From Alkalimarinus alittae (GTDB lineage Bacteria; Pseudomonadota; Gammaproteobacteria; Pseudomonadales; Oleiphilaceae), in the NCBI RefSeq assembly GCF_026016465.1, contig NZ_CP100390.1, positions 1 through 64,000 of the forward strand: a DNA stretch of 64,000 bases. Reading direction: 5' to 3'. Of this stretch, positions 33,959-43,657 are shown in pieces. How positions within the stretch are numbered: position 1 is the stretch's first letter; each line of letters opens with the position of its first letter. Position numbers and translations under genes: made by a program. The notes under the pieces are model-generated. The model was given only the letters and a program-made list of their open reading frames with translations, did no database searches and had not been told where the DNA came from.

Positions 33959-34645
33959 ATGTTTGCGATATTATTAAGCGATAAAATGGACCCGTTCTAC
34001 CAGAACATTGCGTCTTTCCCCACCGCTTTTTTTACCTTCTTTTTAGTGATCTGTTTGCTCTACTGGCTAGTTGCCGTACTCGGGTTAATTGATCTTGATG
34101 TCTTAGATTTCGATATTCCCGACCCTGACGGCCAGTTAGGGGTTAATCAAACAGATTTAAGCACGCCCGATATGTTAGCAGGCCTAATGCTGAAATTAGG
34201 GCTTTACGGTGTGCCGGTGACGATCATCGTTTCATTTATTGCTTTGTTTGGTTGGTTTACGTGCTACTTTGTTGTTCATTTTCTTTTTGGGTTTATACCA
34301 GATGGTTTTTTGCGTTACTTAGCTGGACTGCCCGTTTTACTAGTAACGCTCTATTTCTCGACGATGCTGACAGCTTACACAATTAGACCCATTCGCCCGC
34401 TGTTTAAAAAAGCGAGTCAGAATACGGTGACAGAAGTACTAGGACGAACCGCCATTGTGCGTACATCTAAAGTAAATAATAGTTTTGGCGAAGTGTTCCT
34501 TGCAGATGGTGGCGCAGGGCTCATATTGAAGGCGCGATCGACTGGCGATGAAGTATTCAACAAAGGTGATCGAGTGGTGTTATTGGAATACATGGAGGTA
34601 GAAAATGTTTATCGTGTTATATCAGAAAAGGAATTTTTGAATTGA
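33959..34645 (+). CDS. YqiJ-like OB-fold inner-membrane protein
   Basis: This 228-residue protein has three or four membrane helices (about 20-42, 80-108, 112-135) followed by a C-terminal soluble beta-barrel of the OB/NfeD type (VTEVLGRTAIVRTSKVNNSFGEVFL to VVLLEYMEVENVYRVI). This is the layout of E. coli YqiJ, which is encoded with the flotillin YqiK and belongs to the NfeD-like partners of SPFH proteins. AGGGAGG at 33946-33952 supports ATG 33959. It opens the flotillin-ATPase-rhomboid-nuclease cluster. Confidence 0.82.
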   Translation: MFAILLSDKMDPFYQNIASFPTAFFTFFLVICLLYWLVAVLGLIDLDVLDFDIPDPDGQLGVNQTDLSTPDMLAGLMLKLGLYGVPVTIIVSFIALFGWFTCYFVVHFLFGFIPDGFLRYLAGLPVLLVTLYFSTMLTAYTIRPIRPLFKKASQNTVTEVLGRTAIVRTSKVNNSFGEVFLADGGAGLILKARSTGDEVFNKGDRVVLLEYMEVENVYRVISEKEFLN

Positions 34646-34664
34646 ACCGTGCTTGCTCTAAATT

Positions 34665-34700
34665 CGCCAAAGGGGTCACCTCCGCTTTGGCGAGGATGAC
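34665..34700. repeat. Variant dispersed palindrome between yqiJ-like and yqiK-like genes
   Basis: CGCCAAAG (34665-34672) and CTTTGGCG (34685-34692) flank a 12-nt loop and are followed by AGGATGAC. This is a divergent relative of the CCCGC-GAAG-GCGGG elements, which also end in GATGAC/AATGAC. Confidence 0.5.
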
Positions 34701-34790
34701 AACTCAGTGTAAGCACAGATTATTACTAAACTAGATTCAATTTTATTAATGAGCGTCACACAAAATTTTAAAGAAAATGGAGTAATTTAA

Positions 34791-36803
34791 ATGGCAGATT
34801 TGTCTGTATTAATGCCTATCGCTGTAGGTATAGGTATATTTTTCGCAATATTAATGGGACTTGCCGCTTTATTTAAAGCCTTCTATATCAAGGTTGCCCA
34901 GGGAACGGCGTTGATTGTTAACGATATGAGCTCTAAGCCTAAAGTGCATTTTACCGGCGCATTGGTTTATCCCATCATTTACAAAAAAGAGATGATGAAA
35001 ATCTCGTTAATCACCCTAGAGGTTGATCGCCGAGGTAAAGATGGACTGATTTGCTTAGACAATATGCGAGCCGATATCACGGTTGCGTTTTATTTGCGGG
35101 TTAATGAAACCGCCGACGATGTATTGCGCGTCGCCAAGTCCATTGGTGCTGATCGCGCATCTGATAAAGATGCCGTATATGAACTGTTTGCAGCCAAGTT
35201 CTCAGAAGCACTAAAAACAGTCGGTAAGCAGATCGAGTTTGTTCAGTTATTTGAAAACCGTCTGCAGTTTCGTGAAAAAATTATTGAAGTGATTGGCGAT
35301 GACCTGAATGGCTATGTACTAGAAGATGTGGCGATTGATTATCTAGAGCAGACGCCAAAAAGTGCGCTAGACCCTAGTAATATTCTTGATTCAGAAGGTA
35401 TTAAAAAGATTACCCAGCTGACCGCTAACCAGAATGTAATCACAAACGACCTAGAGCAAAACGAAGCGCTCGCTATTAAGAAAAAGAATGTTGAAACCCG
35501 CGAAGCGATGCTTGAATTAGAGCGCCAACAAGCGGATGCAGAAGCGAAGCAAGAGCGTGAAGTGGCTACGATTAGAGCGCGTGAAGAAGCCGAAACACTT
35601 AAAGTTCAAGAAGAAGAACGTAAGAAGTATGAAGCGACCCGTATTCAGGTCGAGCAAGACTTAGCCGTTCAAACTGAAAATCAGCAACGCGAAATAGAAG
35701 TGGCTGAACAGAACCGTCAGCGTGCAGTGGCTATTGAGCAAGAGAAAGTGACTCGCGCAAGAGATTTAGAAATCGTCTCTCGTGAACGTGAAGTTGAGCT
35801 ACAGAAAATTGAAGCTGAAAAAGCAGTAGAAGTTGAGAAAAAAGAAATCGCTAACGTGATTCGAGAGCGTGTCGTTGTTGATAAAACGGTGGCTATTGAA
35901 GAAGAGCGTATTAAAGAAGTACGTGAAGTCTCTGAAGCAGATCGAGCTAAGCAAGTACAGGTCTTAGCCGCAGAAGCACAGGCTGATGAAGAGAAAGTGA
36001 AACAGGTTAAAGCAGCAGAAGCAGAAGATCTTTCAGCGAAGCACAAAGCCTCTGAAATTACGATTATGGCACAGGCAAACCTTGAAGCATCAGCTAAAGA
36101 AGCTGACGCCAAGAAAAAGCTTGCGGAAGGTATACAAGCAGAAGAAGCCGCAAGCGGTTTAGCAGAAGCCAAAGTACAAGAAGCTAAAGCGGATGCACTT
36201 GAAAAAGAAGGCCTCGCAGAAGCGAACGTGGTTGCTGCAAGAGGCGAAGCAGAAGGTAAAGCGCTACGCGATAAAGGCTTGGCCGATGCAGAAGTGGTTG
36301 CCGCTAAGGGAGAGGCAGAAAGTAAAGCACTACGCGATACCGGCTTAGCCGACGCAGAAGTGATTGCCGCGAAAGGTAGCTCAGAAGCGAAAGCACAGAA
36401 AGAAGTGGGTATGGCGGGTGCAGACGTAACCCGTGAGCAATTTAAAGCAGAGGCTGATGGACTGGTTGAGAAGTTCGATGCAATGGGCTCAATGAGTGAT
36501 AAAGCACGTGATCACGAAGAGTTCCGTATGAGCCTTGAAACCGCCTTCAAAGAAGCGATTGCTTCTATCGAAGCAGGTAAAGAGATTGCTAAAGACAACG
36601 CAGATGTACTGTCTACCGCACTACAGAAAGCCAAAATCGATATTGTGGGCGGCGAAGAGCACTTCTTTGATACGTTTGCCAAGTCATTGTCATTAGGTAA
36701 GGCGATTGATGGCTTATCTACCAAGAGCAGCACGGTTAGTGCACTACTGGCGAAAGTAATGGATGGTCAGGGAAAGGGCTCAACGGTGGAAGAAGAGCGC
36801 TAG
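34791..36803 (+). CDS. YqiK-like flotillin (SPFH-domain protein) with tandem repeats
   Basis: This 670-residue protein has an N-terminal membrane helix (about 8-30), then an SPFH/band-7 domain to about residue 190 (RADITVAFYLRVNETADDVLRVAKSIG). A very long Glu/Ala-rich coiled coil makes up most of the rest. Residues of the form GLAxAxVVAAxGEAExKALRDx repeat three times in tandem, encoded by 66-bp units at 36210-36275, 36276-36341 and 36342-36407. Flotillins scaffold ordered membrane domains. It follows the YqiJ-like gene and precedes the giant ATPase, from which it is separated by 204 bp of dispersed repeats. Confidence 0.9.
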   Translation: MADLSVLMPIAVGIGIFFAILMGLAALFKAFYIKVAQGTALIVNDMSSKPKVHFTGALVYPIIYKKEMMKISLITLEVDRRGKDGLICLDNMRADITVAFYLRVNETADDVLRVAKSIGADRASDKDAVYELFAAKFSEALKTVGKQIEFVQLFENRLQFREKIIEVIGDDLNGYVLEDVAIDYLEQTPKSALDPSNILDSEGIKKITQLTANQNVITNDLEQNEALAIKKKNVETREAMLELERQQADAEAKQEREVATIRAREEAETLKVQEEERKKYEATRIQVEQDLAVQTENQQREIEVAEQNRQRAVAIEQEKVTRARDLEIVSREREVELQKIEAEKAVEVEKKEIANVIRERVVVDKTVAIEEERIKEVREVSEADRAKQVQVLAAEAQADEEKVKQVKAAEAEDLSAKHKASEITIMAQANLEASAKEADAKKKLAEGIQAEEAASGLAEAKVQEAKADALEKEGLAEANVVAARGEAEGKALRDKGLADAEVVAAKGEAESKALRDTGLADAEVIAAKGSSEAKAQKEVGMAGADVTREQFKAEADGLVEKFDAMGSMSDKARDHEEFRMSLETAFKEAIASIEAGKEIAKDNADVLSTALQKAKIDIVGGEEHFFDTFAKSLSLGKAIDGLSTKSSTVSALLAKVMDGQGKGSTVEEER

Positions 36804-36845
36804 TCTAAGATCTGGATAGATATTGTCTAGAATTACATTCTTGGT

Positions 36846-36975
36846 GTCACCCCCGCGAAGGCGGGGATCCATCGTTTTTTGAGAGCGGATTGTAAATGTT
36901 GTCTATGTCATCCTCGCGCAGGCGGGGGCCATCGCTCTTCATTATATGGATTCCCGCCGTTGCGGGAATGACTCA
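36846..36975. repeat. Three copies of the dispersed CCCGC-type palindrome
   Basis: Between the flotillin and ATPase genes lie three related hairpins: CCCCGC-GAAG-GCGGGG (36851-36866), a degenerate GTCATCCTCGC-GCAG-GCGGGGG copy (about 36907-36928), and ATTCCCGC-CGTT-GCGGGAAT (36950-36969) followed by GACTC. They share flanks with the copy after glmS. They may attenuate or stabilise the polycistronic message. Confidence 0.75.
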
Positions 36976-37007
36976 GAGGTTATGGTCATATGTAAAAGGA
37001 TCGAAAG

Positions 37008-40000
37008 ATGGCACAGCAGAACCAGTCTACCGGCGATAGCAATGTCGAAAACGCAGTGGCCGCCGGTGGTGCTTATGAGGTCATTCGTAAGCGTCTTTCT
37101 GAGCAAGGCAAAACGCTCAATCAACTCACCCGTCATTTAAACGAATCCAGACTCGAAGAGTTTGGCAGCTCAGACATGAGTGTGGTGTCACGGGTACGAG
37201 TGAGAACAGAAAATAACAGTGTTGCCCGCGATATGGTGCAGGTCGGTGACTACCTGTTGTTTGGGTATAATGTTTTTTTGGGGCTTAAAAAAGAGACCAA
37301 AATTGAAGATGTATTTTCGCTTTTTCGCCTTAAAAATGAAGGCGATCACTACGACCTTGAACCCGCAGACGACGAACCTAGTTTTTTAACACAAGCCTCG
37401 TTTGTTAGTGACTTTGACGAACTCTACCGCTATTACAAGCATACTCGGCTCGTAGAGCTGAGTGTGAAAAATGGCAAACTATTGGCAGGTTTTCAGATTG
37501 GTGAACGGTTAGAAGATCTTCGCGTTTTCCGCTGGTCTGTGTCTGCAGACGGTAAAGATGTTCAGTACATTGATAGCCGTGGTGAGCGGGATATTCAGCT
37601 ACCCCCTGCTTACGACTTTGAGTGGACGGGCACCACTCGTGAAGACTCGGTTAATGGCCGTCATCCTCATATTAATATTCTGGATAAAGTATTTGTTGAG
37701 ACTGTAGGCGGTGATTTAACCGTTAAGATTGAAAACAATACTGAAGACGGTTTAGGTATCTATCGCGAGCCTGTCGAAGACGATACCCAATCTATTGATG
37801 ATGCAGACTATTTTTATGCCGAACTGGGCGGTTTAATTCTGCTCAAAATAAAGCCCTATCGTGAAGAAACTTGGCGTCATCTTATTTTTAATACGATGAC
37901 AGAAGAAGTGCTTCGAATTGATGCGATTGGTCAGTCTTGTGTTCAGTTGCCCGAAGATCACGGCGTGATATTCCCTGGCGGCTATTATTTGCAGACCGGC
38001 GAATATAAAACCTTTGAGCAAGATAGCGTTAATAGCGAAAGCGGTGGTTTAAAGTTTAAGCAAATGATTCGCTCGCCCAATGGCGAAGATGTGCTGTATG
38101 TCTTCTATGAACCAGAAGAGGGCGTGGTTGGTTTATTTGCCTATAACCTCATTAGTAAAGAACTACAGAACCCTATATATGGGCACGGTTATGCGCTTTC
38201 AGACGCGGGTAAGCTGGTGGTGTTTTCTGCTGAAAGTGAGCCTACGCGCATTCATCCTATGCAGATTTGGCAGACTCCGTTTGTGAGTCAGGAGTTTGCT
38301 AGCAAAGCGGAAGTCAGTCAGTCGTTTTTTGGCCGTATTGGCAATGCAGCCTTGGTGCGAGGTGTGTCTGACCTGTATAGCGTTTGCCGTTTAATCGACA
38401 ATCAATCGGTTTCTTCAAAAGTGTATGAAGAGCTCAGCAAAACCGCTGCTAAGATCTTTGATGCTCATTATTGGATAGCAGACTATAACGCAGCAGAGCA
38501 ACCCTCTGTTGAGTCAATACTCAAAGAAATCACCCAAACATCAGAGTTGGTGATTGATGAGTTTGAAAAAGTAGAAAGTATTCGTCGGCAGTCACAGCAA
38601 TCCATGACCGAAGCCGAAGCTGCACAAAATGATATTTTACTCTCCATTCGCCCTGAAAACTGGGAGATAGCAGAAGAGTATGTTCAAGCGCTTGATCGTT
38701 TACGTCATCAACGCGGCCACCTAGCGACCATTAAAGAACTTCGTTACATTGACCTTGAGCGCATTGCCGCCTTGGACGAACAACTGGTTGAGGCGCAGGC
38801 TCAATTAAGCGAGCAGACGGTTACGTTTCTGTCGAATGAGGAAGCATTAACCCCTTATTTGGCAAAAATAGATGAGCTGAACAAAGAGGTTGATGAAGCT
38901 GAAACCATCGCCTCATTAACACCACTAATCGAAACGATAGAGTCAACGGCGTCTGGGTTAGATCTATTATCTGAACTGATGGCTAGCCTTAAAGTGGATG
39001 ATGCAACGGTTCGCACGCGCATCATTGATTCCATTTCAGAAGTCTACTCAAAGCTTAATCAAAGCAAAGCCACGGCGCGCCATAAGCAGAAGAACTTAGG
39101 TTCAGAAGAGGCTATTGCTCAGTTTGGCGCTCAGTTTAAGTTGTTTTCTCAAAGCATCACTAATGCATTGGGCATGGCGAACACACCTGAGCGTTGCGAT
39201 GAACAGCTATCGCGCTTGTTGGTTCAGTTAGAAGAACTTGAAAGCCAGTTTAGCGAATATGACCAGTTCCTCTCGGATATTATGGCTAAGCGAGAGGAAA
39301 TTTATGAGTCGTTTGAGTCACATAAGCAGCAACTATTGGATGAACGACAGCGTAAAGCCCAGTCAGTCACCGATGCTGCAGACCGAATCTTAGCAAGTAT
39401 TGAACGCCGTTCGCTAAAATTTACCGAAGCGGATGAGCTGAACACTTATTTTGCGTCTGATGCGTTGGTGCTTAAAACCAGAGAAATGGTCGAGCGACTG
39501 CGAGCGCTAGATAGTGCGGTTAAAGCAGACGATGTAGAGTCGCGTTTTAAATCCATCAAAGAGCAAGCGCTACGTTCACTCAGAGATAAGACCGATATTT
39601 ACGAAGAAGGCGGTAAGGTCATTAAGCTGGGCCCACGCCATAAGTTTAGCGTGAATACCCAAGCGCTTGATCTCACCATCTTGCCTCGTAATGGCGAATT
39701 GAATGTTCACCTGACGGGGACCGACTTTTTTGAACCGCTGACGCGCCCAGAGTTACTCAAGCTACGCCCTTATTGGGATATGACTCAAGAGTCTGAAACA
39801 CCTTCGGTTTACCGAGCTGAATATTTAGCCTCGCTCATGCTGCAAGCTGCTGATAAAGACGCGCATGAACTGAGTCATGACCTTTTGCGTGAGGCCTTGT
39901 TAGATCAAGATCAATTACTTAAATTGGTCAGAGATTTTGCTACGCCACGCTATAAAGAAGGCTATCAAAAAGGGATTCATGATCATGATGCAGTATTGCT

Positions 40001-42380
40001 TCTACAGCAGCTGATACCGGCGATGGACAGTGCAGACTTGTTAAAGTTTGACCCGCTATGCCGAGCTTTAGCGCAAGTTTTTTGGGCGAATACCATTCAT
40101 GCAGGGCGAGAAGATCAGTCGGTGTTGCTTGCTATAAAAGCAAAGGCCGAAACATGGCATGAGCGGGCACAGTCTGCTGCGAATATGCTGACCATTTTTA
40201 ATAATCAGCGCGCCACTCAGCTGTTGATTGAAGAGGCCGCGCAATCTATTCGCTTGTTTATTGAACTGTATCCTATCGACGTTACTGAGCGTGATATTGA
40301 CCGAGCGGCGGAATACCTTGTCGCAGAGCTAAGTCGTGAACGTGTCGATTTTATATCCAGTAAGTATGCTCAATTACTGGTAGATGAGCTTAAACGTACC
40401 TTAGATGATACGTCGTGGCGCAAGTACCAGTCGACACTCGAAAAACTTAAAGGGCAGGTAGCCGAGCGCTGGAATTTGAGTGCGTCATGGCTGATTGCAT
40501 TGGTAGAAGGTAAGCAACTCGATCATTTAGTGCGTTATATCCCTGAAGCCATTGCCTTGGTGAATGCTGATGGGCGGTTAGAACGTCGGCCTACCGAAGT
40601 GGATGTTGAACTAACGGTTTCGGGGTTATTAGGCGATCACCCTCGGATTCAAAACCAGCAGCTCTCGTTTGCTTTAGATGAGTTTTTCCAACGACTCGAT
40701 GATCATCAACAACGAGTGGTGAAAGGCTATCATGATTATTTAGCGCTGCGTCAGTCGATTATCGATGAAGAACGCGATGCGTTAAGGCTAGAAACGTTTA
40801 AGCCAAAGCCATTAAGCTCTTTTGTGCGTAATCGATTGATTAATGAATCTTATTTGCCGCTTATTGGTGATAACTTAGCGAAGCAGATGGGCACCATCGG
40901 GGAGAATAAACGTTCTGATCTGATGGGATTATTAATGATGATCTCGCCACCGGGCTACGGTAAAACCACCTTAATGGAATACGTCGCTAGCCGACTGGGT
41001 TTGATATTCATGAAGATCAACTGCCCGTCACTGGGCCATGATGTTCTGTCGTTAGACCCTGAGCAAGCTCCTAATGCCACAGCTCGGCAAGAGCTAGAGA
41101 AACTGAATCTAGGCCTAGAAATGGGTAATAACGTGATGCTCTATCTAGATGATATTCAGCATACTCACCCTGAGTTTCTGCAGAAGTTTATCTCTCTTTG
41201 TGATGGTACTCGTCGTATTGAAGGTATCTGGAAAGGCCAGACTAAAACGTACGACATGCGCGGCAAGAAGTTTTGCGTGGTGATGGCGGGTAACCCGTAT
41301 ACTGAATCAGGCGAAGCGTTTAAGGTGCCAGACATGTTGGCTAACCGAGCAGATATTTATAACCTCGGTGATATCTTAGGCGGTATGGATGAGCAGTTTG
41401 CATTGAGTTATATCGAAAACAGCTTAACGTCTAACCCGGTACTCGCGCCGTTGGCAACGCGGGACATGGACGATACTTATAAACTGGTGAAATTGGCGCA
41501 GGGCGAAAGCATCGCCACCACCGATTTGAAGCATCAATATAGCGGTGCTGAAGTGAATGAAATCACCGGCGTATTGAAAAAACTGTTTACGATTCAAGAG
41601 ATTATTCTCAAGATCAATCAGCAATATATTGCATCGGCCGCCCAAGATGATACCTACCGCACCGAACCTTCATTCAAGCTCCAAGGTAGCTATCGGAACA
41701 TGAACAAGATGGCTGAAAAAGTTTCATCTGTCATGAACCAAGATGAACTGATGCAGATGATTTCTGATCACTACTTAGGAGAGTCTCAACTGCTGACCAG
41801 TGGCGCTGAAGAGAACCTGCTTAAACTGGCTGAGCTTCGGGGCAATATGACCGATGAAGAGCGACAGCGCTGGGCACAAATCAAGAAAGACTTCTTACGC
41901 AACAAAGCCATGGGCGGGGATGATGCCGATGTAGGCGGAAAAGTGATTGCTCAACTGGTGGACTTGGTCGATGGCGTTAAGCAACTAGGCCATGCGGCAG
42001 AAAGTGTTGTGGCTAGTAATGAGTTGAGTGCAGGAGATGATTCGGGTGAAGCCGCTGCGAGTCAACAACTTGATGTGATTAACAGCTCGTTGAATCGCAT
42101 AGGTGATGTTTTGTCCGAAGGCTATAAGGCGATACAGAACCAAAAGCCGGAGGCAGAAAAGGTACAGCCAGCCCCTAACGTTGAAGTGATAAACCAGCCA
42201 GTTCCGGGTCTGGATAAAGTGCTGCATGTACTGGCTAACACAATGGAAAATAGCATCTTTCCATTAGTCAGAGCCATGGATAAGAAGATTGATATTGATC
42301 TTCGAACCCATGACAAAATGGCTGAAATATCTACTCAACTCAGACAGCTAGAATCAGAACTAAAGGGCTCAAACGAGTGA
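37008..42380 (+). CDS. Giant AAA+ ATPase of the DUF3686 / 'DNA repair ATPase' type
   Basis: This 1790-residue protein has an N-terminal beta-rich region (to about 440, with repeated propeller-like strands), a long helical and coiled-coil middle (about 470-880), a further helical segment, and a C-terminal AAA+ module. Walker A PPGYGKTT is at 1314-1321 and Walker B VMLYLDD ends with D1381-D1382. A sensor-1-like MAGNPY and an arginine-finger-like LANRADI follow. The C-terminus is acidic and helical. Homologues are labelled DNA repair ATPase, but I know of no firm functional proof. The rhomboid start GTG overlaps its stop. Neighbours suggest a membrane-linked machine that remodels or delivers substrates. 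Confidence 0.8.
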   Translation: MAQQNQSTGDSNVENAVAAGGAYEVIRKRLSEQGKTLNQLTRHLNESRLEEFGSSDMSVVSRVRVRTENNSVARDMVQVGDYLLFGYNVFLGLKKETKIEDVFSLFRLKNEGDHYDLEPADDEPSFLTQASFVSDFDELYRYYKHTRLVELSVKNGKLLAGFQIGERLEDLRVFRWSVSADGKDVQYIDSRGERDIQLPPAYDFEWTGTTREDSVNGRHPHINILDKVFVETVGGDLTVKIENNTEDGLGIYREPVEDDTQSIDDADYFYAELGGLILLKIKPYREETWRHLIFNTMTEEVLRIDAIGQSCVQLPEDHGVIFPGGYYLQTGEYKTFEQDSVNSESGGLKFKQMIRSPNGEDVLYVFYEPEEGVVGLFAYNLISKELQNPIYGHGYALSDAGKLVVFSAESEPTRIHPMQIWQTPFVSQEFASKAEVSQSFFGRIGNAALVRGVSDLYSVCRLIDNQSVSSKVYEELSKTAAKIFDAHYWIADYNAAEQPSVESILKEITQTSELVIDEFEKVESIRRQSQQSMTEAEAAQNDILLSIRPENWEIAEEYVQALDRLRHQRGHLATIKELRYIDLERIAALDEQLVEAQAQLSEQTVTFLSNEEALTPYLAKIDELNKEVDEAETIASLTPLIETIESTASGLDLLSELMASLKVDDATVRTRIIDSISEVYSKLNQSKATARHKQKNLGSEEAIAQFGAQFKLFSQSITNALGMANTPERCDEQLSRLLVQLEELESQFSEYDQFLSDIMAKREEIYESFESHKQQLLDERQRKAQSVTDAADRILASIERRSLKFTEADELNTYFASDALVLKTREMVERLRALDSAVKADDVESRFKSIKEQALRSLRDKTDIYEEGGKVIKLGPRHKFSVNTQALDLTILPRNGELNVHLTGTDFFEPLTRPELLKLRPYWDMTQESETPSVYRAEYLASLMLQAADKDAHELSHDLLREALLDQDQLLKLVRDFATPRYKEGYQKGIHDHDAVLLLQQLIPAMDSADLLKFDPLCRALAQVFWANTIHAGREDQSVLLAIKAKAETWHERAQSAANMLTIFNNQRATQLLIEEAAQSIRLFIELYPIDVTERDIDRAAEYLVAELSRERVDFISSKYAQLLVDELKRTLDDTSWRKYQSTLEKLKGQVAERWNLSASWLIALVEGKQLDHLVRYIPEAIALVNADGRLERRPTEVDVELTVSGLLGDHPRIQNQQLSFALDEFFQRLDDHQQRVVKGYHDYLALRQSIIDEERDALRLETFKPKPLSSFVRNRLINESYLPLIGDNLAKQMGTIGENKRSDLMGLLMMISPPGYGKTTLMEYVASRLGLIFMKINCPSLGHDVLSLDPEQAPNATARQELEKLNLGLEMGNNVMLYLDDIQHTHPEFLQKFISLCDGTRRIEGIWKGQTKTYDMRGKKFCVVMAGNPYTESGEAFKVPDMLANRADIYNLGDILGGMDEQFALSYIENSLTSNPVLAPLATRDMDDTYKLVKLAQGESIATTDLKHQYSGAEVNEITGVLKKLFTIQEIILKINQQYIASAAQDDTYRTEPSFKLQGSYRNMNKMAEKVSSVMNQDELMQMISDHYLGESQLLTSGAEENLLKLAELRGNMTDEERQRWAQIKKDFLRNKAMGGDDADVGGKVIAQLVDLVDGVKQLGHAAESVVASNELSAGDDSGEAAASQQLDVINSSLNRIGDVLSEGYKAIQNQKPEAEKVQPAPNVEVINQPVPGLDKVLHVLANTMENSIFPLVRAMDKKIDIDLRTHDKMAEISTQLRQLESELKGSNE

Positions 42381-42952
42381 TTAATGCTTTTTGGAAGCGG
42401 TTTAAGATTGTATTAACCGTCTGTGCTGCAATGAGTGTAGTGCACCTGGTTAATATGGCGTTAGGTGGGCAATTGAATCAATTTGGGATACTCCCTCGTG
42501 ATCCCAATAGCCTACCTTACATCTATAGCTCGCCACTGCTACACGGTAATTTAAGTCACCTGATTAATAATTTAATCGGGCTGGCGATATTCAGTTGGCT
42601 TTGTTTACTGAGAACCGTGCGGCTCTATGTCTGGAGCAGTCTGTTTATTATCACTCTAACCGGTATTCTGGTTTGGCTGTTCGGTCGTCATGCTATGCAT
42701 ATCGGTGCCAGTGGTTGGGTCTTTGGACTATGGAGTTTGAGTATCGCGCTCGCCTGTTTTGATCGACGCCCCCTTAATATATTAATCGCCCTTGTAGTGG
42801 TGTTTTTATATGGCGGCATGATATATGGCGTACTCCCGCAAGATGCCTCGATTTCGTTTGAAGCCCACTTTTTTGGGGCTATATCGGGGGTGTTGGCCGC
42901 ATGGCTGTCTACCTGGAAGGTTTTTAAGAGAAATAAAGTTAGAAGGAAGTAA
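42377..42952 (+). CDS. Rhomboid-family intramembrane serine protease
   Basis: This 191-residue protein has six membrane helices. Catalytic Ser112 sits in GASG (110-113) and the partner histidine is H164 in FEAHFFGAISG. The conserved HGNLSHLINN at 56-65 supplies the oxyanion-hole residues. It starts with GTG inside the ATPase stop (4-base overlap), so it is translationally coupled. Rhomboids cut membrane-spanning substrates. Here the likely targets would be proteins of the same cluster or recruited membrane proteins, which is inference. Confidence 0.92.
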   Translation: MINAFWKRFKIVLTVCAAMSVVHLVNMALGGQLNQFGILPRDPNSLPYIYSSPLLHGNLSHLINNLIGLAIFSWLCLLRTVRLYVWSSLFIITLTGILVWLFGRHAMHIGASGWVFGLWSLSIALACFDRRPLNILIALVVVFLYGGMIYGVLPQDASISFEAHFFGAISGVLAAWLSTWKVFKRNKVRRK

Positions 42953-42955
42953 AAA

Positions 42956-43657
42956 ATGAGACTAAAGGAACTAGAAACTCAGCTACGAGAAACGTTGGAC
43001 GATATTAAATTATGTAATGATGAAAAGGTCGAGTTAAGAGCCTTAGCGCCTTCTTTGTCAAAGGATGAGCGTCGTTTTCTCAGAAACAAAGGCTTTGATT
43101 GGGTGCGGGAATGCATTGATCAAGACCCAAGCCAAACCTTTAAAGTGATTAAGTGGTTGGAGCAGGTGGTTAAAACGCTGGATAGCGGTGCGGTTGAAAA
43201 TACCGTTGAAAGCTCAGCTCACTTTAGCCCAGGCGATGAGTGCCGTCGTAAGATTATCGACTTGTGTCATCAGGCTAAACAGTCGATTGATATCTGCGTC
43301 TTTACCATATCAGATGACACCCTGAGTGAAGCAATTTATAAGGCGCATAAACGGGGTATTGAGGTCAGAATTATTACTGACAATGACAAATCTAACGATT
43401 TAGGCAGTGATGTGGATGATTTAGCCGCTAAAGGTGTGAGTCTTAGAATGGATCGAAGTCCAAACCATATGCATCATAAGTTTGCAGTGTTTGATCATTC
43501 AATTTTGCTCAATGGCAGCTTCAACTGGACTCGCAGTGCGTCTCGCTATAATGAGGAGAACATCGTGATCAGCGGTGAAGTTGCCATTGTTGATGAGTTC
43601 CAGCGTAAGTTTGAGGCGCTTTGGTCGCTCTTTGGTAGATCGTCAGCTAGTGTTTGA
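42956..43657 (+). CDS. Phospholipase D-like (single-HKD) putative nuclease
   Basis: This 233-residue protein has a helical N-terminus (to about 85) and one PLD domain. The HKD motif is H173-x-K175-x4-D180, followed by GSFNWTRSASRYNEEN with the conserved Asn and Glu. Single-HKD proteins of this size, such as Nuc and mitochondrial PLD6-like enzymes, act as dimers and cut nucleic acids or phospholipids. No signal peptide is seen. AAGGAAG precedes ATG 42956, three bases after the rhomboid stop. Its end overlaps the convergent amidohydrolase gene by 11 bases. Confidence 0.85.
   Translation: MRLKELETQLRETLDDIKLCNDEKVELRALAPSLSKDERRFLRNKGFDWVRECIDQDPSQTFKVIKWLEQVVKTLDSGAVENTVESSAHFSPGDECRRKIIDLCHQAKQSIDICVFTISDDTLSEAIYKAHKRGIEVRIITDNDKSNDLGSDVDDLAAKGVSLRMDRSPNHMHHKFAVFDHSILLNGSFNWTRSASRYNEENIVISGEVAIVDEFQRKFEALWSLFGRSSASV

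What the first reader, a model, noticed from the sequence alone, without database searches (positions are those of the whole stretch)
33959..43657. Membrane-microdomain cluster: YqiJ-like, flotillin, giant AAA+ ATPase, rhomboid protease, PLD-like nuclease
Five codirectional genes make a coherent but unfamiliar set. A membrane OB-fold protein and an SPFH scaffold are followed by a 1790-residue AAA+ ATPase. The ATPase overlaps a rhomboid protease by 4 bases, and a single-HKD nuclease starts 3 bases later. ATPase, protease and nuclease together with a membrane platform suggest a system that senses membrane or DNA damage and then cuts protein and nucleic acid. Defence or envelope stress are both possible. 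The yqiJ-yqiK pair is known; the protease-nuclease tail is what I find striking.
Basis: partly seen in the sequence, partly recalled or inferred. Interest (0 to 1): 0.8.

Follow-up and report, generated by a model that had tools for sequence, protein, structure and literature searches.

The report
Membrane-stress operon with built-in protease
A known bacterial membrane-stress gene cluster here also carries, in a recurring arrangement, a protease that cuts inside membranes and an enzyme resembling one on mitochondria, which suggests a bacterial counterpart of the protein clean-up hubs of mitochondria and the endoplasmic reticulum.

Summary
In detail: YqiJ-like membrane protein, flotillin-type SPFH protein, 1790-aa DUF3686/AAA+ ATPase, rhomboid (4-base overlap) and single-HKD PLD (3-base gap), all on the + strand. 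It is not a chance cluster: in 92 loci the two commonest gene clusters within 3 kb downstream of the ATPase are the PLD (37 loci, all co-directional) and the rhomboid (31, all co-directional). The core, and a PLD 'in some Proteobacteria', were published in 2024 (PMC11237479, passages read) as a PspA-linked operon; its main text does not mention a rhomboid, and my searches found none linked to it. The rhomboid Ser-His dyad is invariant in 42 of 42, the PLD motif in 39 of 39. The tail is optional: 6 of 19 systematically drawn loci have the rhomboid, 4 of 19 the PLD. The PLD is nearer to mitochondrial cardiolipin hydrolase/Zucchini than to bacterial Nuc, so 'nuclease' is unproven; yet 8 loci add an SF1 helicase resembling Mokosh defence proteins. 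Best reading: an SPFH-scaffolded membrane-protein quality-control hub that works like (is not a member of) mitochondrial SLP2-PARL-YME1L. No experiment has tested it.

The parts
33959..34645 (+). YqiJ/NfeD-like membrane protein (228 aa), hydrophobic stretches at residues 16-51, 72-114 and 121-142
   Evidence: ORF; relative present in 71 of 72 ATPase loci with enough flank; hydropathy
34791..36803 (+). Flotillin-type SPFH protein (670 aa), one N-terminal hydrophobic stretch, long charged (coiled-coil-like) tail
   Evidence: ORF; tblastn relatives annotated SPFH/flotillin; 71 of 72 loci; hydropathy
37008..42380 (+). Giant ATPase: DUF3686 (aa 37-488), DUF7902 (612-695), C-terminal AAA+ module
   Evidence: Pfam; PF12458; PPGYGKTT and DDIQ invariant in 29 of 29 aligned relatives (Walker A/B names recalled)
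40779..41912 (+). AAA+ stretch modelled (aa 1258-1635)
   Evidence: Model mean pLDDT 80.4; Foldseek: NorQ (MoxR-type) first, then RuvB, spastin, Lon, CbbQ, p97, TM-scores by query 0.27-0.42
42377..42952 (+). Rhomboid intramembrane serine protease, Ser112-His164, overlaps the ATPase stop by 4 bases
   Evidence: Pfam PF01694 65 bits; both residues invariant in 42 of 42; profile aligned to GlpG homologue
42956..43657 (+). Single-HKD PLD-family protein: N-terminal all-helical domain (about aa 1-77) plus PLD domain (100-223)
   Evidence: Pfam PF13091; model pLDDT 83.4; H173, K175, D180 invariant in 39 of 39; nearest solved relatives MitoPLD/Zucchini

Best explanation
A membrane-protein quality-control and envelope-repair hub. 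The flotillin-type SPFH protein with its YqiJ partner forms a scaffold on the inner membrane; PspA (encoded beside it in most relatives, elsewhere in this genome) is recruited there under envelope stress; the giant AAA+ ATPase docks on the platform and pulls apart or dislocates membrane proteins; the rhomboid, whose gene overlaps the ATPase gene, cuts transmembrane segments so that they can be dislocated, or presents them to the ATPase; the PLD-type hydrolase cuts a phosphodiester substrate at the same site, either a membrane lipid such as cardiolipin or a nucleic acid. Shown here: gene content, order, strand, overlap, recurrence, conserved catalytic residues. Inferred: co-transcription, physical association, membrane site of the ATPase, enzyme activities, substrates, order of events.
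For: Conserved core and recurrent tail: of 72 loci with enough flank (of 86), YqiJ 71, SPFH 71, PspA 51, CesT 50, rhomboid 34, PLD 34. All 31 clustered rhomboids and all 37 clustered PLDs are co-directional; 16 of 32 close downstream rhomboids overlap the ATPase by exactly 4 bases. The rhomboid also sits elsewhere in the operon: between PspA and YqiJ (L038, L062) and right after PspA in plasmid pQBR103. Catalytic residues: rhomboid 42 of 42, PLD 39 of 39. On the best ATPase tree (99 rows, fast method) the rhomboid state needs at least 13 changes and the PLD 10. 36 of 41 operon rhomboids form one clade (100/99). How such parts work elsewhere: SPFH protein YdjI localises PspA (PMC8581546, abstract); rhomboid YqgP is protease and adaptor for the AAA protease FtsH (PMC7231995, passages); SLP2-PARL-YME1L hub (PMC12344103, passages); RHBDL4 with erlins and with p97 (PMC12765900, passages).
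Against: The tail is optional (6 of 19 rhomboid, 4 of 19 PLD in systematic draws); one drawn genome (G240) has the ATPase but keeps its rhomboid of this subfamily on another contig. The rhomboid subfamily is common without the operon: 46 of 274 class genomes at 100 bits or more, only 2 of them with the ATPase. A PLD with the same N-terminal domain occurs in a genome in which no ATPase was found (G104, 85% complete). The AAA+ module is not shown to be of the FtsH/YME1L/p97 clade. No fusion between components was found. An SF1 helicase beside the PLD in 8 loci points to nucleic acid. The window lacks an adjacent PspA.
Confidence: 0.5

Rival explanations
1. Anti-phage or mobile-element defence: the membrane platform and ATPase sense infection-linked membrane damage, and the PLD (with a helicase in some genomes) destroys nucleic acid while the rhomboid cuts membrane proteins.
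For: 8 loci (5 Pseudomonas, 3 Motilimonas) carry an SF1 helicase right after the PLD, overlapping by 4 or 1 bases in the five; for the two helicases scanned the best PADLOC match is MkoC of Mokosh (3e-44, 9e-47), and the three PLDs scanned match MkoC, MkoB or DrmC weakly. Patchy distribution: 9 of 56 order genomes, 0 of 3 further genomes of the window's family; presence on pQBR103.
Against: No PADLOC system among 17 window proteins; the helicase clusters in only 8 of 92 loci; PspA and CesT accompany 51 and 50 of 72 loci. Any UPF1-like helicase might match MkoC; no control was run, and the relatives' flanks were not scanned for defence genes.
Confidence: 0.2
2. Tellurite/Ter-type stress module: the operon is a branch of TerB/TelA-type membrane stress networks, with the PLD as its phosphodiesterase and the rhomboid as a side enzyme.
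For: TerB-like small gene in 24 of 72 loci; TelA directly after the PLD in Vibrio campbellii; a TerD gene about 4 kb from the Streptomyces core; the PLD N-terminal domain resembles the TerB-like gene best of six families, but weakly (hhalign probability 25%).
Against: The three TerB-like proteins scanned all score below Pfam's TerB cut-off. I did not search the loci for TerC, TerD or TerZ.
Confidence: 0.15
3. Chance or passenger cluster: rhomboid and PLD are unrelated neighbours carried along by descent.
For: The state is inherited within clades such as Pseudomonas; a single origin of all operon rhomboids is not rejected (AU p 0.106); 22 standalone rhomboids of the subfamily show, by eye, no common neighbour beyond near kin.
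Against: Many changes of state on the best tree (13 and 10) while the two families still rank first and second downstream; full co-directionality; rhomboid in several operon positions.
Confidence: 0.05

Closest known systems
CesT/Tir-PspA + TM-band-7-flotillin + AAA+ ATPase with beta-propeller + YqiJ/YuaF operon (PMC11237479, mSystems 2024)
   Same: Same kind of core genes; that paper also reports a PLD (HKD) hydrolase in some Proteobacteria. That its ATPase is the DUF3686 family is my inference from the description
   Different: Rhomboid has 0 occurrences in its main text (supplements not read); in the window the CesT-PspA pair is not adjacent but at about 1.38 Mb (L136)
Mitochondrial SPY hub (SLP2-PARL-YME1L)
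   Same: SPFH scaffold, rhomboid protease and AAA+ machine
   Different: AAA+ here has no peptidase domain in Pfam and is not shown to be of the FtsH clade; the link here is genomic only
ER erlin-RHBDL4-p97
   Same: SPFH proteins, active rhomboid and AAA+ machine
   Different: Different AAA+ type as far as the model tells; no biochemical data here; no ubiquitin (recalled)
YqgP-FtsH (Bacillus subtilis)
   Same: Bacterial rhomboid coupled to a AAA+ machine in membrane quality control
   Different: FtsH carries its own protease; the paper's main text has no mention of SPFH or flotillin
MitoPLD/Zucchini (PLD6) and Nuc/NucT
   Same: Single-HKD PLD domain; MitoPLD is the nearest solved relative (8.6e-27 against Nuc 3e-12)
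   Different: N-terminal all-helical domain and no hydrophobic stretch; activity untested
Mokosh (MkoA/B/C)
   Same: In 8 relatives a PLD gene lies next to an SF1 helicase gene
   Different: No helicase after the PLD in the window; weak PLD match only

Membership tests
PspA-linked flotillin/AAA+/YqiJ operon (PMC11237479) | Band-7/flotillin protein and YqiJ-type partner | tested here: met
   (by relatives; no own Pfam hit)
PspA-linked flotillin/AAA+/YqiJ operon (PMC11237479) | AAA+ ATPase with N-terminal propeller and coiled coil | tested here: inconclusive
   DUF3686, DUF7902 and AAA found; the propeller and coiled coil were not modelled
PspA-linked flotillin/AAA+/YqiJ operon (PMC11237479) | CesT/Tir-PspA pair in the operon | tested here: not met
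   Not beside the window genes; a DUF2170-PspA pair lies elsewhere in the genome. The paper also describes abbreviated operons without the pair
Active rhomboid protease | Catalytic Ser (GxSG) and His | tested here: met
   Ser112 and His164 in 42 of 42; they align with the Ser and His contexts of a GlpG homologue
Active rhomboid protease | Six transmembrane helices | tested here: inconclusive
   Simple hydropathy shows fewer separate stretches (9-31, 81-107, 125-155); no model was made
Active rhomboid protease | Proteolytic activity | not testable with these tools
   Needs a cleavage assay
Rhombosortase | TIGR03902 cut-off (84 bits) | tested here: not met
   30.8 bits
MitoPLD/PLD6 | Nearest relatives among solved PLDs | tested here: met
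   one standalone PLD stretch as control prefers Nuc
MitoPLD/PLD6 | N-terminal transmembrane anchor (recalled) | tested here: not met
   No hydrophobic stretch
Mokosh | SF1 helicase with the PLD | tested here: not met
   The gene after the PLD in the window is an amidohydrolase on the other strand; the helicase is in 8 of 92 loci
SPY-type hub | AAA+ protease of the FtsH clade | tested here: not met
   Pfam shows no peptidase domain; the one HExxH-like stretch (HELSH) is not conserved in the 6-row alignment; fold matches NorQ best, at low TM
SPY-type hub | Physical complex of SPFH, rhomboid and AAA+ | not testable with these tools
   Needs co-purification

The most novel reading that the evidence does not exclude
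A bacterial operon encodes a complete SPFH-rhomboid-AAA+ membrane proteolysis hub together with a MitoPLD-like cardiolipin hydrolase, a prokaryotic counterpart, possibly even a forerunner in design, of the mitochondrial SLP2-PARL-YME1L hub; and in some lineages the same operon has been wired to a Mokosh-like PLD-helicase pair, joining membrane repair to anti-phage defence.
Probability: 0.2. Interest if true: 0.88.

Novelty: new variant of a known kind. Interest (0 to 1): 0.62.

Why it matters
Rhomboid proteases pervade prokaryotes but their functions there are largely elusive (abstract of PMC7231995, seen; a rhomboid rang in 14 of 14 control genomes). Here one rhomboid clade is genetically tied to an SPFH scaffold, PspA and a AAA+ ATPase. 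That makes the question of what SPFH platforms do for intramembrane proteolysis testable in a tractable bacterium, where in mitochondria and the ER it is studied in complex systems. It also gives the DUF3686 'DNA repair' ATPase, a name that occurs in 0 of the held papers, a concrete membrane hypothesis.

Tried and rejected
Chance cluster: disfavoured. Rhombosortase: below cut-off; a search for GlyGly-CTERM proteins in the genome found none, but its controls were silent too, so it says nothing. Defence island: no PADLOC system among the 17 window proteins given (one search lists 63 mechanical ORFs of 90 aa or more); weak single matches are told above. Phage carriage: no match. Natural fusions between components: none among ORFs of 107 loci; the 903-aa ORF of L150 is an upstream extension of the SPFH frame. 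PLD N-terminal domain as TerB: best of six comparisons but only 25% probability. Independent recruitment of the rhomboid: the tree needs 4 changes (bootstrap 3-4, at least 2 forced by starred branches), but one clade of all 42 operon rhomboids is not rejected (p 0.106), so I do not claim it. Dependence of PLD on rhomboid over 11 independent pairs: on average 4.6 go the same way, 0.0 the other way, 6.4 do not differ; median p 0.0625, suggestive only. Empty-site comparison: three further genomes of the window's family lack the ATPase, but the flanking genes are absent or much diverged there, so no site could be defined. Promoter/terminator scan: no more sites than in shuffles. SPFH against solved structures: no match with a single sequence. 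VIA-align comparison was not available.

Full report
Observation. Pfam names the ATPase (DUF3686, DUF7902, AAA), the rhomboid and the PLD; the first two genes are named from relatives.

Known core. A 2024 study (PMC11237479; [quoted passage not shown] Four of the five genes are thus described there as a set; that its ATPase is the DUF3686 family is my inference. The word rhomboid has 0 occurrences in the main text of that paper, of the SPFH evolution paper PMC2636767 and of the 2026 Pseudomonas SPFH survey PMC13086221. Searches for rhomboid with flotillin, operon and bacteri (2 papers), rhomboid with PspA and phage shock (4 papers) and DUF3686 (none) gave, from their listings, no report of the link. 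The library holds open-access papers only.

Recurrence. Of the 72 with at least 5 kb upstream and 3.5 kb downstream: YqiJ 71, SPFH 71, PspA 51, CesT 50, rhomboid 34, PLD 34, TerB-like 24, zinc-ribbon 16. Of the 78 with at least 2.5 kb downstream, 32 have a co-directional rhomboid there, 34 a PLD, 24 both, 36 neither; 16 of the 32 rhomboids overlap the ATPase by exactly 4 bases. A clustering of every gene within 3 kb downstream, over 317 genes in 92 loci, ranks PLD first (37 loci, 37 co-directional), rhomboid second (31, 31), zinc-ribbon third (14), an SF1 helicase fourth (8) and TerB-like fifth (7). For it I gave 105 loci (86, plus 14 less L144 and L147, whose ATPases repeat L048 and L023, plus 7 plasmid loci); 13 had less than 3 kb downstream.

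Less biased sample. Systematic draws found the ATPase in 7 of 274 class genomes, 9 of 56 order genomes and 8 of 398 phylum genomes: 21 distinct genomes, the window's own included in each draw. Two contigs end just after the ATPase (L152, L153), leaving 19. The rhomboid follows in 6 of 19 (window, L142, L144, L147, L149, L150) and the PLD in 4 of 19 (window, L142, L144, L150). L144 and L147 are also in the 80. One of the 13 without a linked rhomboid, G240, keeps one of the same subfamily on another contig. Of 12 records of the plasmid collection with the ATPase (some are chromosome-sized) I fetched 11: one has a rhomboid (pQBR103, right after PspA), two Vibrionaceae have a PLD directly after the ATPase, and the other eight (two Deinococcus, two Streptomyces, Nonomuraea, Hymenobacter, Halomonas, Proteus) have neither. 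So the core is found in four phyla, and in what I looked at the tail is confined to Gammaproteobacteria in the NCBI sense.

Evolution. On an ATPase tree of 99 rows (fast method, several long branches) the rhomboid state needs at least 13 changes and the PLD 10. 36 of 41 operon rhomboids form one clade (100/99) and five lie elsewhere. With pQBR103 added, one clade for all 42 is not rejected (p 0.106). The wider rhomboid subfamily reaches 100 bits in 46 of 274 class genomes, of which only the window's and G240 have the ATPase; 22 standalone ones fetched show, by eye, no common neighbour beyond near kin. The PLD with its N-terminal domain matched over nearly full length (from model position 4 or earlier) occurs in 2 of 274, the window's genome and G104, in which no ATPase was found. 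The window's genome has three further rhomboids.

Enzymes. Rhomboid H56, H61, N65, S112 and H164 are invariant in 42 of 42; PLD H173, K175, D180, S188 and N190 in 39 of 39 (members were chosen by profile score). The PLD model (pLDDT 83.4) matches mouse MitoPLD/Zucchini first and second and Nuc third. By sequence the window's PLD scores 8.6e-27 against MitoPLD and 3e-12 against Nuc; the profile 3.6e-40 against 4.8e-21. One standalone PLD stretch (143 aa) from the same class prefers Nuc (3.8e-27 against 1.1e-12). The solved entries name that family mitochondrial cardiolipin hydrolase; it is also known as the piRNA nuclease Zucchini (recalled), so this does not decide the substrate. The AAA+ model (pLDDT 80.4) matches NorQ first, then RuvB, spastin, Lon, CbbQ and p97, at TM-scores by query of 0.27-0.42 among the top 50. 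It has two strands before the sensor-1 strand, which I read, from recall, as the pre-sensor-1 hairpin rather than the FtsH/p97 clade.

Result against a purely proteostatic reading. In five Pseudomonas loci an SF1 helicase gene overlaps the PLD gene by 4 or 1 bases, and in three Motilimonas loci it follows after 147-211 bases. For one of each, Pfam sees AAA_11/AAA_12 and PADLOC's best match is MkoC of Mokosh. I ran no control for how any UPF1-like helicase would score. At least in those lineages the PLD may well meet nucleic acid, and a defence role is open.

Mechanism. SPFH scaffolds are tied to PspA (PMC8581546, abstract), to rhomboid plus AAA+ in mitochondria (PMC12344103, passages) and, through erlins, to the rhomboid RHBDL4, which also binds p97, in the ER (PMC12765900, passages); a bacterial rhomboid serves both as protease and as adaptor for a AAA+ protease (PMC7231995, passages). 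Placing the same three kinds of part in one operon, with overlapping genes, makes a membrane-protein quality-control hub the most economical reading. It works like those hubs; it is not shown to be related to them as a complex.

Verdict. Real and recurrent; known at its core; the rhomboid link and the MitoPLD-like character of the PLD appear new within the searches named above.

Noticed in passing
L033 15932-18646, also L035, L036, L037, L091, L044, L055, L093: SF1 helicase (AAA_11/AAA_12 in the two scanned) directly after the PLD, overlapping it by 4 or 1 bases in Pseudomonas; best PADLOC match MkoC of Mokosh. A possible joint of a membrane-stress operon and a defence pair.
   Followed up: partly
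L156 31-13235 (plasmid pQBR103): The yjf-type genes (YjfI, PspA, DUF2491, DUF350, DUF1190, glutathionylspermidine synthase) and the YqiJ-SPFH-ATPase genes are joined in one run, with a rhomboid right after PspA.
   Followed up: partly
L136 6043-7157 (window genome at about 1.38 Mb): The window's genome keeps a DUF2170-PspA pair in another place, beside a gene whose protein bears a potassium-channel-like motif (motif recalled).
   Followed up: partly
L048 15973-16509, L142 14223-14765 and 12 further loci: A zinc-ribbon (TFIIB-type) protein of about 180 aa recurs downstream of the ATPase, in L048 and L142 between rhomboid and PLD; the window has none there.
   Followed up: partly
L160 13572-14630: TelA-type toxic anion resistance gene directly after the PLD in Vibrio campbellii.
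   Followed up: no
L013 5917-11010: The ATPase gene of this relative holds a stop codon and appears as two open frames; left as it is.
   Followed up: no
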